Positions 5,764-33,943 of a stretch of 33,943 nt of DNA are shown piece after piece. Position 1 is the stretch's first letter. Each line of letters starts with the position of its first letter. The stretch spans positions 1-33,943 of the forward strand of contig JAAFIM010000037.1 of the NCBI GenBank assembly GCA_013297745.1. The letters are read 5' to 3'. Under the pieces are notes generated by a model that did not search any database, had not been told where the DNA came from, and saw nothing but the letters and a program-made list of their open reading frames with translations. The stretch comes from Chitinophagales bacterium (GTDB taxonomy: Bacteria; Bacteroidota; Bacteroidia; Chitinophagales; Saprospiraceae). The position numbers were made by a program, and so were the translations under genes.

Positions 5764-5877
5764 ATAATCCCCGTGTTTCACACGGGGCAATTACTGTTCA
5801 ACCCCTTCGGGGTTAGCAAAATAAAACCCCAACGGGGTTTAACAGAAATAACCCCGCGTTATAACGCAGGGACAACG
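5764..5877. repeat. 114-bp four-hairpin repeat block, copy A
   Basis: Four short G/C-stem hairpins follow one another: CCCCGTGT/ACACGGGG, AACCCC/GGGGTT, AAACCCC/GGGGTTT and an imperfect CCCGCGTT/AACGCAGG. Copy B at 9173-9286 has the same length and differs at about seven positions, with no gaps. Most differences fall in loops or between stems. Confidence 0.88.
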
Positions 5878-5915: not shown

Positions 5916-6134
5916 AACTCTAATAATGGAACTGCTAACTCTAACGTTGAAACTGCTAACTCTAACGTTGGAACTGCTAACTCTAACGTTGGAACTGCCA
6001 ACTCTAACGTTGGAACTGATAACTCTAACGTTGGAACTGCTAACTCTAACGTTGAAACTAATAACTCTAACGTTGAAACTAATAACTCTAACATTGGAAC
6101 TAATAACTCTAACGTTGGAACTCGTAACTCTAAT
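5916..6134. repeat. 21-bp tandem repeat array
   Basis: Ten complete 21-bp units (5916-6125) plus nine bases of an eleventh occur head to tail. The core is AACTCTAACGTTGGAACT followed by a variable triplet (GCT, GCC, GAT, AAT, CGT). The unit is a multiple of three and lacks stops in four of six frames, which creates spurious open frames on both strands. In the plus frame starting at 5916 it reads N-S-N-V-G-T-x, but that frame has no start codon. There are no spacers, so it is not a CRISPR array. Confidence 0.9.
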
Positions 6135-6142
6135 AAAAAAAA

Positions 6143-6169
6143 TAGAGACACTGCAATGCAATGTCTCTA
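6143..6169. repeat. Imperfect TAGAGACA palindrome
   Basis: TAGAGACA (6143-6150) pairs with TGTCTCTA (6162-6169), and an inner TGC/GCA pairs after one C-A mismatch. It is a diverged relative of the palindrome at 5632-5660 and lies on the other side of the tandem array. Confidence 0.7.
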
Positions 6170-6217
6170 CTGATAAATTAAAATAAAAAACCACCGTAAA
6201 AAACTTGTTGCTAATTA

Positions 6218-9172: not shown

Positions 9173-9286
9173 ATAATCCCCGTGTTTTACACGGGGCAAT
9201 TGCCGTTCAACCCCTTCGGGGTTGGCAAAATAAAACCCCAACGGGGTTTAACAGAAATAACCCCGCGTTACAACGCGGGGAAAACG
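9173..9286. repeat. 114-bp four-hairpin repeat block, copy B
   Basis: This block has the same length and order of four hairpins as copy A at 5764-5877, in the same orientation. Its fourth hairpin is perfect here (CCCGCGTT with AACGCGGG), whereas copy A has a mismatch, so copy B may be nearer the parent sequence. Confidence 0.88.
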
Positions 9287-28015: not shown

Positions 28016-28702
28016 ATGCGAATAATCTTTTTCTTTTTAGCTTTTTTGTCCTTTTTTTCCCCTTTTTTGCCCGCACAAAATGCTTCTGAAGACATAAGTG
28101 CTCAAATTATAGAAGTATCTGGGGTGGTTTTGTATCGCAATGATAGAGGCAAATTGGAACCTGTGCCTTATACGACAGTATTGGCTCTCAACACCTCGCG
28201 CGGTACTTACGCCAATTACGATGGGATGTTTTCGCTGGTGATTAAAAAAGGGCAAACTTTGCGATTTTCTGCTATAGGTTTTGAGACGGTAGAACTAACC
28301 GTACCAGCAGAGCAACCAGACTTTAGCCAATCGGTCATAATTGAGCTTAAACCACAAGCTGCCGAGCTTAATCAGGTCGTGGTTATGCCCTGGCCAAATC
28401 GGAATAATTTGCGCGCTGAGTTTTTGGCTATGAACCCCAACGAGGCGTTGATGATGCAGGCAGAAGCACGCCGCAATTTGGAAGAAAAGCAATTGTTGGC
28501 TATGCAGCAATCGTTTAAAATGGATAGCAAAGATGCAGCTACTTATTATTTGCAAAAACAAGCCCGCGATTTTTCTTATATGGGACAACTACCCCCACAA
28601 GCTATTTTTGACCCGTTGGCTTGGGCTAGATTTGCGCGCGAACAAAAAGCGAAAAAAGAGAAGAAAGAAAAAGAGAAAAAGCAAAAAAATTCATTGGATT
28701 AG
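28016..28702 (+). CDS. Secreted CarboxypepD_reg-like domain protein
   Basis: The 228-aa product has a signal peptide (1-21, ending LPAQ) and a CarboxypepD_reg-like beta-sandwich (about 33-125): SGVVLY, EPVPYTTVLALNTSRGTYANYDGMFSL, FSAIGFETVEL. This domain is found at the N-terminus of TonB-dependent receptors, but here it stands alone. The C-terminal half is helical and ends in a Lys/Glu-rich tail (about 207-225). The role is unknown; exposure in the periplasm or at the surface is inferred. Its terminator is the left copy of the 43-bp repeat that flanks the defence cassette. Confidence 0.87.
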   Translation: MRIIFFFLAFLSFFSPFLPAQNASEDISAQIIEVSGVVLYRNDRGKLEPVPYTTVLALNTSRGTYANYDGMFSLVIKKGQTLRFSAIGFETVELTVPAEQPDFSQSVIIELKPQAAELNQVVVMPWPNRNNLRAEFLAMNPNEALMMQAEARRNLEEKQLLAMQQSFKMDSKDAATYYLQKQARDFSYMGQLPPQAIFDPLAWARFAREQKAKKEKKEKEKKQKNSLD

Positions 28703-28717
28703 CATTCGTCAAATTTT

Positions 28718-28760
28718 ATAAAAAAAACCTACCAATCAACAGAAAGGTAGGTTTTTTTAT
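28718..28760. terminator. Left 43-bp direct repeat and bidirectional terminator
   Basis: Eight A followed by CCTACC, a 12-base loop and GGTAGG followed by seven T make a bidirectional hairpin terminator (stem 28721-28733 with 28746-28758). The whole 43 bp is identical to 33286-33328. It ends the transcript of the gene at 28016 and, in the other direction, that of the nuclease gene, whose stop codon begins at the next base (28761). Confidence 0.93.
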
Positions 28761-30356
28761 TTATTTTTTGCAAGCGATTACAATTTGGTCGCGATTTTTT
28801 AAATAGTAGATTTTACCAACCCAATAATGAAAGTTTTTTAGAATAAGTTCCCTTATTATTTTTTCATCTTTTAAATAAAGAAAGGAATATTTTTTCTCTA
28901 TGGCGTTTATGATTTGTTGGCGAATATACCATTTTAATTCCTGCCGAGTGGAATTAATGTCTTTTTTACTACAATAACTACTTAATAAAAATAGATAATT
29001 TATTTTAAATACAAATAAAAATAGGCTATTTCTATCGAAAAAATTATTGGGAAAATGATGATTAGACTCTGTATTTAAACATTGTTCAAATTTAATTTTT
29101 ATATTTTGTTGCTCAATGTTTAAGTAATCAATCTCCAAATAGGGACGAATGAAAAAATTAGGTATAAAATTATATCCTTTGCTATCCCCATTCTTATAAG
29201 AAACTGTTTCGTCAATATTAGGGTTCTTGATAAATTGTTGGCGGCAATTCAACGCATAAGTTAGTTGTTTATATTGTCCAATATCTTTGTTATTGAATAT
29301 AGTGTCAGTTTTATAGTATTTAGAATCAGCTATGTAGTAAATGTCGGCATCATTCCAAATATCTTTATCTTTATAAAGATGGTCTATCTCTTTACCATCT
29401 TCTTGATTTTTCAAAATTTTATTAGTAATCTCGTTATCGTCAGACAATAATTTATTTACCATATTTTCAAAAATAATATGGTAGTTTTTAGTATAAATAT
29501 ATTGTGGATTTTCTAGATTATTTTTACTTTCATATTGGGCTTTGCAAAAAGCTATTAGTAGCAATAAAAGCTGTTTTAATCTATCTTCAAAATGAATACT
29601 TTTAAATTCATTTAGTTTTTGGGTTGCACGTTGATAAAATTTTACATTTAGTTTTATAGTTGTGGGCTGATTATTACTAATCGGGAAATGATAGCGTTGT
29701 TTTATTTCTCCTAAAACTTGATTATATATTTCTATTAGCTCATTTTTGCTATCAATTTGTTTAGTTTTTTGCCAAAAATTCCCATAAATAGGGCTATCAG
29801 CAACGAACAAAGGTTGTTCGTTGCTGATAGTTTTATTCCAATTAACTTTATAATTGGTATTTTTTCGCTGCTGTTGTTGGATAAAAATAACTAAATTTTG
29901 ATTTTTTTTGTAGAAATCAAATAAGTTGAATGCTATATCCAAGTCAGACCATTGCTGTATATTTTTTGACCGAATTACTTTTTTTAAAGTTTGGGGTTCG
30001 CTATTAGCATTATCCATTTGATTTTTATATTTTTGAAAAGATATAAACAGCAAGCGGATAATTTTGGTGATAAAATTTTTATATTTCTCTTCTAAATCCA
30101 ACCATTTGGTGTTAGATTTTGCAAATTCGCAAACGTCTATTCCAAATAATTGATTTGTTGAGTCAATAAAAATTTTAGGAAGTGCCAAAATATCTAAATT
30201 TTTTGAGGAGTCCCTATACAAGCCCACAATATCAACACCTAGTTTAGGGGATTTATTAGTAGTCTTATTTTTAAATTTGTTATTACTCAAAAAAGTTTTT
30301 AACTCTTCACTAACAGACACCCCTGTGTAGTCAAATTGTTCAATTAATATGTACAT
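28761..30356 (-). CDS. McrC/LlaJI-type restriction nuclease subunit
   Basis: The 531-aa protein is probably the nuclease that partners the AAA+ protein encoded 6 bp upstream. A PD-(D/E)xK core is visible: Glu297 in IIFENMV, Asp325 in GKEIDHLY and the Asp344-x-Lys346 pair in YYIADSKYY, followed by GQYKQLTYAL. In LlaJI, BsuMI and McrC proteins the nuclease follows an McrB-like gene and has a similar ADxK-containing strand. The N-terminal 230 residues and C-terminal 150 are Lys/Asn/Tyr-rich and unassigned. The family (LlaJI endonuclease versus McrC) is inferred from motif and context, not from full alignment. Confidence 0.7.
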   Translation of the reverse strand: MYILIEQFDYTGVSVSEELKTFLSNNKFKNKTTNKSPKLGVDIVGLYRDSSKNLDILALPKIFIDSTNQLFGIDVCEFAKSNTKWLDLEEKYKNFITKIIRLLFISFQKYKNQMDNANSEPQTLKKVIRSKNIQQWSDLDIAFNLFDFYKKNQNLVIFIQQQQRKNTNYKVNWNKTISNEQPLFVADSPIYGNFWQKTKQIDSKNELIEIYNQVLGEIKQRYHFPISNNQPTTIKLNVKFYQRATQKLNEFKSIHFEDRLKQLLLLLIAFCKAQYESKNNLENPQYIYTKNYHIIFENMVNKLLSDDNEITNKILKNQEDGKEIDHLYKDKDIWNDADIYYIADSKYYKTDTIFNNKDIGQYKQLTYALNCRQQFIKNPNIDETVSYKNGDSKGYNFIPNFFIRPYLEIDYLNIEQQNIKIKFEQCLNTESNHHFPNNFFDRNSLFLFVFKINYLFLLSSYCSKKDINSTRQELKWYIRQQIINAIEKKYSFLYLKDEKIIRELILKNFHYWVGKIYYLKNRDQIVIACKK

Positions 30357-30362
30357 ATTCAG

Positions 30363-31991
30363 TTAGTTATCCTTTGTAACAAAGTTATAAAATTGTTTTA
30401 GTATTTTATCGCCATTGCTAGTGAATAACTCTTCAAAGGTGAAATTATTAATTTTCTCACCGTCCATGAATTTGAAAAAATAATACTCATCAGTTGGACT
30501 TTCGTGTTTTAGTATATCAAACCAAAGATAAGCCATCACTTTATTTTTAAAAGTAGCAAAACTGATTATATTATCGGTCGCTACTACAAAATAAGTTCCC
30601 ATTTGTTTATCTTCGCTATTGCTTATAGCTTTGATTTTAGTATTTATGGCGCGTAAAAATTTACCCCAGCTGCCAGTGCCAAATTCTTCAATACCAATTT
30701 TATCGGCCGCTTCGTAATCAATGGGTACGTATTCCCATTCCCAGCGTCGTTTGAAAGCACTATCCATAGGAAATAATGATTGGTCGCTGGTGTTCATCGT
30801 TGCTAAAATGGATAAGTTGGGGGGCAAACATAACCATTCAAAAACATTTCCTACCCTTCTTTTATTCTTTGTAAAGAAAAAATCATTTAATTTTACTGAA
30901 TAATCTGTATCTTTAAATTCTTCTTTTAAAAAATACTGTAAATCTGCATCCACTTTAATTGGATATTGAGAAAATCCTAAGTTGTCTCTATCCAAAAGTT
31001 GGAAAATATCCCCAAAAATAGCAGCACAATTACCTCTGTTTAGTTCTTCAATGACTAAATAATGGTGTTCGTTTAAATATTTCCATGCCCTAACATAAAT
31101 ATCTATGAAAACTTGCGGGGTGAACTTATAACTAATTTTATCACCAATCATCACAGGTTTGTAGACTCCAATAAAATTATGATAATCATAATTAGGATGG
31201 AAAGTGATTTTGTGGAAAAAGCAATTTTGGATTAATTTATTTATTGTGAATGATTTGCCTGTACCAGGACAACCAAAATACACTTTATTAAAGGGCTTCA
31301 TAATTAAATTATTAGGTAAAAAAGTAACTAATGATAATGGAAATTCTTTGAAATCTTTTGTATCAGATAGTTTATCGTCTACGAAAAAGTATCTTCCGTG
31401 GCAAAAACTTGTTAAGTTTTCAATATTATCTGCTGTTTCTAAAACTTGTTTGATTTGAGTAATTAATTGGGAATGGTTAAAATATTTCTCAATAATTTCT
31501 CGAGTTTGGCTTTTAGGGCTGAAATGAGTGTAATTAAATGTAAAATATAAAGCTATTACTATAAACAGATAGCCTTCATAAATATTATCTTTAAATTCAA
31601 TATCTATAGCTTCATTTTGGTATTCAAAGAGATTGTTTTTATAAAAAGGAAAATTAACTAAAATATTTGTTAGTATAAAAATTCTTTTAGTTAATGATTG
31701 TTTGAATTCTTGTAAATGATGAGCGCATATTTTTGCTAATTGTTCATCATCTTTGATTAGGCTGCGCAAATAATTAGCATCCTTAAAGTGTTTTTCTACA
31801 AACTCTTTAAGAGAGATTTTTAGCTTAGGTGTATCTTTCAACATACTAGAACCACAATTAATTGGGTTCTGACCGCCTGCACCAAATAAGAGTTTGGCAT
31901 CAAATTCTTTAAGAGTTAGATAAAGACGGTCAGGACTTTGAGGTCTGTATAATTGATGTAATTTATCAGCACTAAAACTATTTATCAGCAT
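30363..31991 (-). CDS. McrB-like AAA+ GTPase subunit
   Basis: The 542-aa protein has an N-terminal region (1-230) without recognised motifs and a C-terminal AAA+ module. Walker A is GCPGTGKS at 240-247. Walker B is YLVIEELNRGNCAAIFGD at about 311-328, where McrB has IIDEINRAN. The sensor/GTP-specificity motif is MNTSDQ at 399-404, where McrB has MNTADR, and an arginine-finger-like RRW follows at 415-417. In McrBC the hexamer hydrolyses GTP, translocates on DNA and activates the nuclease. It overlaps the methyltransferase gene by 7 bp and precedes the nuclease by 6 bp, so translation is probably coupled. The N-terminal region may recognise DNA. Confidence 0.85.
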   Translation of the reverse strand: MLINSFSADKLHQLYRPQSPDRLYLTLKEFDAKLLFGAGGQNPINCGSSMLKDTPKLKISLKEFVEKHFKDANYLRSLIKDDEQLAKICAHHLQEFKQSLTKRIFILTNILVNFPFYKNNLFEYQNEAIDIEFKDNIYEGYLFIVIALYFTFNYTHFSPKSQTREIIEKYFNHSQLITQIKQVLETADNIENLTSFCHGRYFFVDDKLSDTKDFKEFPLSLVTFLPNNLIMKPFNKVYFGCPGTGKSFTINKLIQNCFFHKITFHPNYDYHNFIGVYKPVMIGDKISYKFTPQVFIDIYVRAWKYLNEHHYLVIEELNRGNCAAIFGDIFQLLDRDNLGFSQYPIKVDADLQYFLKEEFKDTDYSVKLNDFFFTKNKRRVGNVFEWLCLPPNLSILATMNTSDQSLFPMDSAFKRRWEWEYVPIDYEAADKIGIEEFGTGSWGKFLRAINTKIKAISNSEDKQMGTYFVVATDNIISFATFKNKVMAYLWFDILKHESPTDEYYFFKFMDGEKINNFTFEELFTSNGDKILKQFYNFVTKDN

Positions 31992-33199
31992 TGTTTATTG
32001 ATTTTAATATTAAAAACATATTTAATTTTGTCTAAATCTTTGCCTTTAGCAAGATTTTCCAGCCTTTTTTCAATAATATTAAAAGAGCTTATATTGTTTT
32101 CACATACAATGCAACTCCTTTGAAGTTTTATAGCGGTTGCTAAGGTTGTTCCACTACCAGCAAAAAAATCTCCAACCAAATCATTGGGAAGACTACAAGT
32201 ATTTAGAATAAATTCCAGTAATTTTTCAGGCTTTTTAGAATCTTTAAAATCACATCCTACCCCTCCTTCTTTGTAGGTTTGAGGAACTATTTCTGTGTAA
32301 TCTAAATGATTTGTTGGTAAAATAGGGCGTCCAGCAGTGAGGGACGATTGATAATAAATTCCACTTTTTCTTTTGCTATTTTGTGTTTCAAACCAGCGAT
32401 AACCTAAACCATTTTTTTCCAAATCATATACTTTGATAAGTAGGTTGTCACCTAAACCTCGTAAATGATTTTCAAAAAATTCTCCTGACCAGTTACCAGT
32501 TGCCAATTTTCCAGCTATAATGTATCTCCTGAAATTGGATAAACTTGGCTCCTTTTTTACTACAGTGTATTGGTTAGGCTGATAAATTTCTATTTTTTTA
32601 CCGTTAATAATTTCTGTCTGTGGAGTGCATTTTGTAACAATTGTATAAATAAATTTTTCAACATTAGCTACTTTATGCTCAGTAAAAAACCTGGTTTGAG
32701 GCTTTTTTCGATAGAATAGCAAGTACTCAAAAACATCATGATAAGTTGCATTTATCATTAGTTGTCTATCTGTGTGACGTATTTTTACAGGAAACAAACC
32801 AATAAAACAATCAGAACCAAAAACTTTATCAGAAAGATTTTTTAAATTAAATAATTCTGTTTGATTTATTGATAAAACTAAAAAACCTGTTGATTTTAGT
32901 AAAGTATGGCAATTTTTTAATAAAAAACTCATTTCTTCTTGCCAATTATTATTTGAATCAGAGTATATTTTTCTTGCCCCGCGTGTTCTTTTTGTATTAT
33001 ATGGCGGGTCTAGATATATTAATTGGAAAGAATCAGGATTTTTATGAATTTGTTTATTGCTAAACTCAATTGCATTTTCAAAAGATAATTCATATAGATT
33101 TTCGTTGTTAATTCTAGTTGTTTGTTCTTCATTATTAGTTTTAGCTCCATTTTCTTTCTGCCAAAAAGCTAATTGATTATTTAATAATTCTAATTCCAT
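31985..33199 (-). CDS. Beta-class DNA methyltransferase (N6-A or N4-C)
   Basis: The 404-aa product has motif IV DPPYN at 64-68 before motif I FAGSGTT at 346-352. That order defines the beta class of amino-methyltransferases. DPPY favours N6-adenine, but N4-cytosine cannot be excluded. Between them lies a long variable region likely to hold target recognition. An open frame runs upstream to 33307, but the ATG at 33199 is preferred: it removes a hydrophobic leader overlapping a -7-like element. It leads the operon and presumably protects the host from the two downstream subunits. LlaJI and BsuMI carry C5-cytosine methyltransferases here, so this pairing differs. Confidence 0.88.
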   Translation of the reverse strand: MELELLNNQLAFWQKENGAKTNNEEQTTRINNENLYELSFENAIEFSNKQIHKNPDSFQLIYLDPPYNTKRTRGARKIYSDSNNNWQEEMSFLLKNCHTLLKSTGFLVLSINQTELFNLKNLSDKVFGSDCFIGLFPVKIRHTDRQLMINATYHDVFEYLLFYRKKPQTRFFTEHKVANVEKFIYTIVTKCTPQTEIINGKKIEIYQPNQYTVVKKEPSLSNFRRYIIAGKLATGNWSGEFFENHLRGLGDNLLIKVYDLEKNGLGYRWFETQNSKRKSGIYYQSSLTAGRPILPTNHLDYTEIVPQTYKEGGVGCDFKDSKKPEKLLEFILNTCSLPNDLVGDFFAGSGTTLATAIKLQRSCIVCENNISSFNIIEKRLENLAKGKDLDKIKYVFNIKINKQC

Positions 33200-33227
33200 A
33201 TTTTTGTTGTTTTTGGTTATTGCGCTG

Positions 33228-33235
33228 CAAAGATA
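33228..33235 (-). promoter_or_regulatory. Putative -7 element (TATCTTTG) of the defence operon
   Basis: CAAAGATA on the plus strand reads TATCTTTG then CAGCGC on the minus strand, 28 bp upstream of the methyltransferase ATG. TTTG at 33261-33258 lies 22 bases upstream as a slightly distant -33 candidate. It sits inside the cassette, between the methyltransferase start and the right repeat. Confidence 0.55.
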
Positions 33236-33285
33236 CGGCTTTATATGAAAAACTAAACAAAATTGTTTCAGGTTTATAAAAAAAA

Positions 33286-33328
33286 ATAAAAAAAACCTAC
33301 CAATCAACAGAAAGGTAGGTTTTTTTAT
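33286..33328. terminator. Right 43-bp direct repeat and accC terminator
   Basis: It is identical to 28718-28760 over 43 bp. It lies 12 bp past the accC stop and acts as the terminator of accC on the minus strand. It also insulates the cassette promoter from accC read-through. Confidence 0.93.
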
Positions 33329-33340
33329 GCTTACAAAAGC

Positions 33341-33943
33341 CTATTTCAAATCTTTGAGGTTCATATTATCAATGAACTTGGTGGTGAAGTTGCCTTTGAT
33401 AAAATCTTCGTTTTTCATCAACATTTGGTGGAAAGGGACGGTTGTTTTTATCCCTTCTGCGATAAATTCGTCCAAAGCGCGCGACATTTTTTGTATACAC
33501 TCTTGGCGAGTGCGCGCCCGAACTATCAATTTTGCTATCATTGAGTCGTAAAAAGGGGGAATTGTATATCCCGCATAAACGTGGGTATCTACCCGCACGC
33601 CGTGTCCTTTGGGGCTGTGGAAAGATTGAATTTTGCCAGGAGAGGGGCGGAAATCGTGGCTTGGGTCTTCAGCGTTGATACGGCATTCGATAGCGTGGGC
33701 TTGAGGATAATAATTTTTACCCGATATTTTCTCCCCAGCAGCAATTTTTATCTGCTCTCTAATCAGGTCAAAATCAATCACTTCTTCAGTAACGGTGTGT
33801 TCTACTTGGATGCGGGTGTTCATTTCCATAAAATAGAAATTTTTGTATTTATCCACCAAAAACTCTATTGTACCCACACCCTCGTAATTGATAGCTTTGG
33901 CTGCTTTTACGGCTGCTTCGCCCATTTTTTCGCGCAATTCTTG
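33341..33943 (-). CDS. accC: Biotin carboxylase subunit of acetyl-CoA carboxylase (3' part)
   Basis: AccC is the ATP-dependent biotin carboxylase of acetyl-CoA carboxylase, the first step of fatty acid synthesis. Only the C-terminal 200 residues are in the window; the gene continues past the right edge. Visible family motifs are [29 protein letters not shown] with the catalytic Glu, Asn and Arg, [13 protein letters not shown]-type residues ([21 protein letters not shown]), [10 protein letters not shown] and the C-terminal helices. The end of the gene is intact, so the adjacent cassette did not disturb it. Confidence 0.93.

What the first reader, a model, noticed from the sequence alone, without database searches (positions are those of the whole stretch)
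28718..33328. Defence cassette bracketed by duplicated 43-bp terminators
The two 43-bp repeats are identical, each is a complete bidirectional terminator, and they enclose exactly a promoter and three restriction-modification genes. Deleting the 4568-bp period leaves the left neighbour and accC convergent on one shared terminator, which is the likely ancestral state. The terminator thus behaves like an attachment site that is regenerated on both sides, so neither neighbour loses its terminator and the cassette is insulated. No recombinase is encoded, so the mechanism is open.
Basis: partly seen in the sequence, partly recalled or inferred. Interest (0 to 1): 0.88.

Follow-up and report, generated by a model that had tools for sequence, protein, structure and literature searches.

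The report
Foreign genes bracketed by copied terminators
A DNA-defence gene cassette sits between two identical copies of a transcription stop signal, and the same genome shows the arrangement around several other AT-rich, probably foreign gene groups, as if new DNA keeps landing in shared stop signals and copying them.

Summary
Two identical 43-bp bidirectional terminators enclose a promoter-like site and three genes: methyltransferase, McrB-like AAA+ protein, LlaJI-like nuclease. The repeat core occurs only twice in the 96%-complete assembly, and the cassette is AT-rich (28% versus 39% GC). The stronger result lies outside the window. In 1.43 Mb of the same genome (a third), 12 of 123 neighbouring terminator pairs are similar (15% edits or fewer), against a mean of 0.26 in 1000 permutations, and the DNA between them is AT-rich. 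I count ten clean sites; cargo includes this R-M system, a Septu system and unrelated genes. Most sites duplicate their own sequence, three of ten pairs are inverted, and one duplication is 207 bp. So a sequence-specific attachment site is unlikely, and the arrangement is not tied to defence. It best fits 'insertion with long target duplication', known for R-M genes, with shared terminators as usual target. No relative was close enough to show an empty site, so ancestral state and mechanism are inferred.

The parts
28016..28702 (+). left outer gene, CarboxypepD_reg-like domain protein, reads into the left terminator
   Evidence: ORF; PF13715 7.2e-15; ends 18 bp before the hairpin
28718..28760 (.). 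left copy of the 43-bp bidirectional terminator; ends directly at the nuclease stop codon
28761..30356 (-). LlaJI-like restriction endonuclease, 531 aa
   Evidence: PF09563 1.6e-9; no PADLOC match at 0.001 and no NCBIfam match at 0.01
30363..31991 (-). McrB-like AAA+ protein, 542 aa
   Evidence: PF07728 5.8e-7; PADLOC REase_II 5.5e-39; McrB equivalog 4.5e-10, far below its cut-off
31985..33199 (-). N6/N4 DNA methyltransferase, 404 aa
   Evidence: PF01555 2.7e-30; PADLOC MTase_III 8.2e-27
33228..33261 (-). promoter-like site TTTG-N22-TATCTTTG of the operon
   Evidence: pattern match; 12 matches in the window against 4.5 expected, so single matches are weak
33286..33328 (.). right copy of the 43-bp bidirectional terminator
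33341..33943 (-). accC (biotin carboxylase), cut by the contig end, reads into the right terminator
   Evidence: PF02785 9.7e-45; ends 14 bp from the hairpin

Best explanation
A foreign R-M operon was inserted at the bidirectional terminator that the 28016 gene and accC had shared, and the terminator was duplicated in the process, so that each outer gene kept a stop signal and the operon gained one. [quoted passage not shown] Most likely mechanism (inferred): incoming AT-rich DNA is joined or copied in by the host's own illegitimate recombination or replication template switching, using the T-tract on one side of the hairpin and the A-tract on the other as microhomology, so the hairpin between them is copied twice. 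Selection then keeps the insertions that leave both convergent genes terminated. Shown: identical bracket, AT-rich composition, recurrence, no recombinase family in the cassette. Inferred: the single-terminator ancestor, the joining route, the role of selection.
For: Identical repeats found only here. AT-rich cassette. Similar hairpin pairs (15% edits or fewer) concentrate within 6 kb: 16 of 176 local pairs against 26 of 25,249 others. 12 of 123 consecutive pairs are similar, against a permutation mean of 0.26 and maximum of 2 in 1000. Of 13 inter-hairpin segments under 32% GC, 7 have similar brackets, against 4 of 111 others, p = 6e-6. The hairpins behave as terminators: 114 of 210 lie between convergent genes and 5 of 210 between divergent ones, median 19 bp from a stop codon. 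Outer genes converge at 8 of my 10 clean sites, and at those 8 both end within 25 bp of their hairpin (coordinates; my reading). A 207-bp repeat brackets one AT-rich gene. Precedent: R-M genes inserted with long, variable target duplications (passages of PMC3874152; PMC3031569; PMC1643837).
Against: No empty site was seen in any relative examined. Inverted pairs (3 of 10) do not follow from a simple staggered-cut duplication. Some bracket hairpins have a near-copy far away: one mismatch at 211 kb for the C1 231593 pair, one edit for copies at C1 105995 and C1 217731, so hairpins also spread without an obvious insertion. Five distant homologues of the McrB-nuclease pair (nuclease 28-30% identical) show no exact direct repeats of 16 bp or more within 4.5 kb on both sides. 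Two relatives of the family have very few such hairpins, so generality beyond this lineage is unknown. Ku was not found, which argues against classical end joining.
Confidence: 0.6

Rival explanations
1. The cargo was inserted first by another route, and the neighbour's terminator was copied next to it afterwards (gene conversion or template switching), kept because it insulates the cargo.
For: Inverted pairs and distant similar hairpins (26 of 25,249 pairs; one-mismatch copy 211 kb away) show that hairpins can be copied without an obvious insertion; AT-rich cargo may lack terminators of its own.
Against: At the 8 convergent clean sites both outer genes end within 25 bp of their hairpin; a later copy need not produce that. 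The 207-bp bracket is much longer than a terminator.
Confidence: 0.18
2. A structure-specific mobile or repair activity acting on hairpins (cruciform resolution with fill-in of hairpin-capped ends, a Y1/HUH enzyme in trans, or a similar factor) captures DNA at terminators and duplicates the hairpin.
For: The structure is shared while the sequence mostly differs by site; at most of the pairs shown the identity ends near the A- and T-tracts; inverted copies fit a palindrome-based step; Y1 transposases are present, 5 matches.
Against: Some duplications run past the hairpin: about 20 bp at C122, 9-14 bp at two C78 pairs, 207 bp at C95. Of two Y1 loci looked at, one lies among palindromes unlike the terminators and the other has no such hairpin.
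Confidence: 0.15
3. Sequence-specific attachment site of a site-specific recombinase or integron-like system acting in trans.
For: Direct repeats, cassette without recombinase. Hairpins at three bracketed places (C1 105995, C1 216523, C78 38066) are related to each other, about 13-22% edits apart.
Against: The sequence of the present site occurs only here, and other brackets have other sequences and lengths; no attC-type core is visible by eye in the 43-mer.
Confidence: 0.05
4. Chance or paralogy: neighbouring terminators look alike because genes with their terminators were duplicated in tandem.
For: Paralogous genes occur at the C78 array, and 126 of 148 local direct repeats were paralogue-like by my filter.
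Against: At ten pairs checked (eight of the ten clean sites and two C78 pairs) the 60-bp flanks are only 0.23-0.45 identical; cargo differs from host in composition; permutations do not reach the observed number.
Confidence: 0.02

Closest known systems
Insertion with long target duplication of R-M genes (Helicobacter pylori; Nobusato et al. 2000, Furuta et al. 2010, known here only through passages of PMC3874152, PMC3031569 and PMC1643837)
   Same: R-M genes, no recombinase in the insert, long and variable direct repeats of target sequence on both sides.
   Different: There the event was shown by comparing strains. Here the duplicated target is typically a terminator hairpin, cargo is mostly not R-M, some copies are inverted, and no empty allele was found.
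LlaJI / McrBC-like R-M systems
   Same: McrB-like AAA+ protein next to a LlaJI-family nuclease, with a methyltransferase in the operon.
   Different: An N6/N4-type methyltransferase (PF01555); the two cytosine methyltransferases of LlaJI are recalled, not looked up.
Engineered marker between two copies of the yolB/yolC bidirectional terminator in B. subtilis phage SPss (PMC8880864, one passage)
   Same: The same architecture: cargo placed in the shared terminator of convergent genes with a terminator copy on each side.
   Different: It was built on purpose; here it appears to arise naturally.
REP/RAYT and group IIC intron systems that act at palindromes or terminators
   Same: Hairpins as DNA targets (structured DNA target of a group II intron: abstract start of PMC10190682 in the listing).
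   Different: The three cassette proteins match no such family and there is no sequence common to all sites; the preference of IIC introns for terminators is recalled.

Membership tests
Insertion with long target duplication | Long direct repeats flank the insert | tested here: met
   43 of 43 identical, 4568 bp apart
[quoted passage not shown]
   No relative close enough; left gene and accC not found side by side in relatives examined
Insertion with long target duplication | Insert carries no recombinase or IS | tested here: met
   Only R-M families match the three ORFs in Pfam
Insertion with long target duplication | Repeat is target sequence, not carried by the insert | tested here: inconclusive
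   Other sites mostly duplicate their own sequences; 5 of 5 homologous gene pairs elsewhere lack bracketing repeats
LlaJI-like R-M system | LlaJI-family nuclease | tested here: met
   PF09563 37.9 bits, cut-off 23.6
LlaJI-like R-M system | McrB-like AAA+ subunit | tested here: met
   PF07728 over cut-off; the McrB equivalog cut-off is not reached
LlaJI-like R-M system | Cytosine-5 methyltransferases (feature recalled) | tested here: not met
   Only an N6/N4 methyltransferase in the operon
Site-specific attachment site / integron | Common core sequence across occupied sites | tested here: not met
   Sequences differ at most sites, though hairpins at three bracketed places are related; the present core is found at this locus only
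Site-specific attachment site / integron | Recombinase encoded in the unit | tested here: not met

The most novel reading that the evidence does not exclude
This lineage has a general gene-capture route in which the hairpin of any bidirectional terminator, recognised by structure or by transcription termination rather than by sequence, is the landing site: DNA is inserted and the whole hairpin is copied to the other side. The result is self-insulating cargo slots between convergent genes that can be used again, giving arrays.
Probability: 0.25. Interest if true: 0.85.

Novelty: new variant of a known kind. Interest (0 to 1): 0.62.

Why it matters
How small defence operons without recombinases enter chromosomes is an open question. 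A genome with many terminator-bracketed cargo segments would make it testable: it gives junctions to compare, shows that cargo need not be R-M, and suggests why such insertions are tolerated, since both neighbours keep a terminator. It also offers a sequence-only way to find foreign cargo: look for locally repeated terminators.

Tried and rejected
Empty site: I searched 60 relatives with the left gene (59 of 60 hit) and with accC (59 of 60). Comparing the listed best hits by eye, they share a contig in four genomes, at least 33 kb apart, and lie on different contigs in the rest, so adjacency across a contig break is not excluded there. In 29 of the left-gene loci, which have up to about 1.5 kb of flank, accC was not found. 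A family-wide search found the left gene at 49% identity at best; 16 of 398 genomes, the own one included, pass E <= 1e-50, and the 3 loci returned from others lack accC.

Dispersed terminator: rejected for this site, two copies only. Ku-dependent end joining: no Ku match in the own genome. Y1 transposase as the driver: present, but of two loci looked at one has palindromes of another kind and one has none. Same bracket at homologous gene pairs: none in 5 of 5 loci; the nuclease has relatives in 5 of the 394 other genomes of the phylum sample. Plasmid carriage: one plasmid record, 28% identity.

Sites set aside before the count of ten: C78 36485/36796 (a MITE-like insert, type recalled), the C78 38066/38977/41040 array (paralogous small proteins), C67 22130/25619 and C144 40956/45789 (38.7 and 35.9% GC), the C95 3789-4047 palindrome cluster, C89 20211/21096 (39.9% GC), C1 14512/15355 and window 5816/9225 (not of the A-tract/T-tract type). 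Of the 12 similar consecutive pairs, 8 are among the clean ten and 4 are set aside; the other two clean sites (C70, C95 10912) came from the direct-repeat scan. In some searches my similarity measure missed the C1 231593/233119 pair because of trimming; one search corrects this. The pair counts behind the Fisher test are not independent.
Full report
What is in the window. The repeat is real: 43 of 43 bases identical at 28718-28760 and 33286-33328. Each copy is an A-tract, a G+C stem, a 12-base loop and a T-tract, and folds well on both strands. Between the copies lie a methyltransferase (PF01555), an McrB-like AAA+ protein (PF07728) and a LlaJI-family nuclease (PF09563), all on the minus strand, with a Bacteroidota-type promoter match just upstream (motif recalled). 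The outer genes, a CarboxypepD_reg-like protein and accC, converge on the block and end 18 and 14 bp from their hairpins. The cassette has 28.4% GC against 38.9% for the window upstream of it.

Is the repeat special? The 28-base core, with up to 3 mismatches, occurs only twice in the held 4.28-Mb assembly. The same stem with another loop occurs once more. This is not so clean everywhere: the C1 231593 pair has a third copy, one mismatch away, 211 kb off.

The same arrangement elsewhere. I took stretches of the own genome, 1,426,115 bp with the window (2,792 N), and listed A-tract/T-tract hairpins: 226. They behave as terminators: of 210 outside ORFs and away from stretch ends, 114 lie between convergent genes and 5 between divergent genes, while background adjacent ORF pairs are 45 and 45 of 322; the median distance to a stop codon is 19 bp. 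Similar pairs (15% edits or fewer, either orientation) make up 16 of 176 pairs within 6 kb and 26 of 25,249 others. Among consecutive hairpins 12 of 123 are similar; in 1000 permutations the mean is 0.26 and the maximum 2.

The DNA between them is unusual. Segments between similar neighbours run from 26.9 to 38.7% GC (n = 12 at 20% edits or fewer), against a mean of 38.3% (sd 3.0) for 112 other segments (p = 1.4e-6). Of the 13 segments under 32% GC, 7 have similar brackets; of the other 111, 4 do. A scan that did not assume hairpins gave 148 local direct repeats of 22 bp or more; 126 were dropped as paralogue-like by my filter. Of the 22 left, 8 bracket DNA of 33.1% GC or less: five of these are terminators of this type, one is the 207-bp repeat, one a different palindrome and one has no hairpin.

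Ten sites I regard as clean (selection is mine): C86 28718/33286 (this one), C67 20752/22130, C70 49787/50344, C122 72511/74564, C1 105995/107201, C1 216523/217731, C1 231593/233119, C95 10912/12309, C95 26179/26512 and C144 54943/56405. Cargo GC is 27-35%. Outer genes converge at 8 of 10. Three pairs are inverted (C1 216523, C95 26179, C144 54943). Cargo at C122 is a Septu system (PtuA 2e-116, PtuB 2.2e-48). At C95 26179 it is a 94-aa piece matching candidate defence family PDC-S05 (1.8e-21). C1 105995 carries an acetyltransferase-domain protein. C67 carries an HTH and an SH3 protein. C95 10912 carries a gene with a Fic-like motif (seen by eye, not tested), bracketed by 207 bp. Of ten cargo proteins given to Pfam, six match nothing at 0.01, among them PtuB and the PDC-S05 piece. 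Names such as phoH, secA, mnmG and bioD for outer genes are my reading of the translations.

What this means. Most sites duplicate a sequence of their own, so no sequence-specific attachment site explains them together; the exception is that hairpins at three bracketed places (C1 105995, C1 216523, C78 38066) are related to each other. The recurrent element is a shared terminator between convergent host genes with AT-rich cargo inside two copies of it. The simplest common history is insertion into the shared terminator with duplication of that terminator. The literature held here describes this kind of event for R-M genes: some R-M systems insert with long and variable target duplications in the order of 100 bp (PMC3874152, passage; also PMC3031569, passages; PMC1643837, passages). 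One of the primary papers was asked for and is not held; the other was not tried. Nine searches of the library for target duplication, terminators as target sites and related terms gave no report of this pattern as a natural phenomenon in the rows listed; six of the nine lists were cut short of the number of papers found, and I judged rows by title and abstract start. One paper builds the same architecture on purpose: a marker between two copies of a bidirectional terminator of convergent genes (PMC8880864, passage).

Mechanism. Not shown. Template switching or illegitimate joining at the A- and T-tracts would copy exactly the hairpin between them, and selection against losing a terminator would enrich such products. 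Extensions past the hairpin (about 20 bp at C122, 207 bp at C95) fit a variable process. Inverted pairs need an extra step. A cruciform-based route would give exact hairpin copies but not the extensions. Ku was not found. Y1 transposases exist (5 matches); of two loci looked at, one sits among palindromes of another kind and the other has no such hairpin.

Limits. No held genome of the same genus was listed; the host is probably in or near Saprospiraceae, judged from the nearest phoH records (59-64% over most of the protein, 73% on one short end piece). Host gene order at the two sites tested (this one and phoH/secA) was not found in relatives, so no empty site was seen; the other sites were not tested. 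Such hairpins are much rarer in the relatives sampled: 7 in 384 kb and 2 in 400 kb (the second genome has 59% GC), and 62 in 1.76 Mb of all non-own loci held then, which include those two, so the pattern may belong to this lineage. Only a third of the genome was examined.

Noticed in passing
G000:C122:72511-74599 (L148): Septu (PtuA-PtuB) defence operon bracketed by a near-identical terminator pair that extends about 20 bp past the hairpin on the left.
   Followed up: yes
G000:C95:10912-12515 (L093): 207-bp exact direct repeat around a 356-aa gene with a Fic-like motif; insert 30.8% GC.
   Followed up: partly
G000:C78:36485-41076 (L126, L127): Run of related terminators separating small lipoprotein-like and HTH genes, like an array of successive insertions; some genes are paralogues.
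   Followed up: partly
G000:C84 (L235:1058-1945): Y1 transposase gene beside five closely related 27-bp palindromes, a REP/RAYT-like arrangement.
   Followed up: partly
window 5816-5861 and 9225-9270: 46-bp repeat with CCCC-GGGG palindromes around folC-like and lipoprotein-like genes of normal GC; looks like a dispersed repeat, not a terminator pair (not searched genome-wide).
   Followed up: no
window 5926-6186; also L079, L080, L081, L090, L092: Tandem repeats with a 21-bp period occur at several places in this genome.
   Followed up: no
G000:C95:3789-4047 (L093): Three copies (two direct, one inverted) of a 39-bp terminator palindrome within 260 bp, among other GTTATCCACGG repeats.
   Followed up: no
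own-genome sample, e.g. C1:27103, C65:92, C70:2726: Palindrome GTACTTTTTGCAGGCGCAAAAAGTAC in 8 identical copies (either orientation) in 653 kb, a dispersed palindrome family.
   Followed up: no
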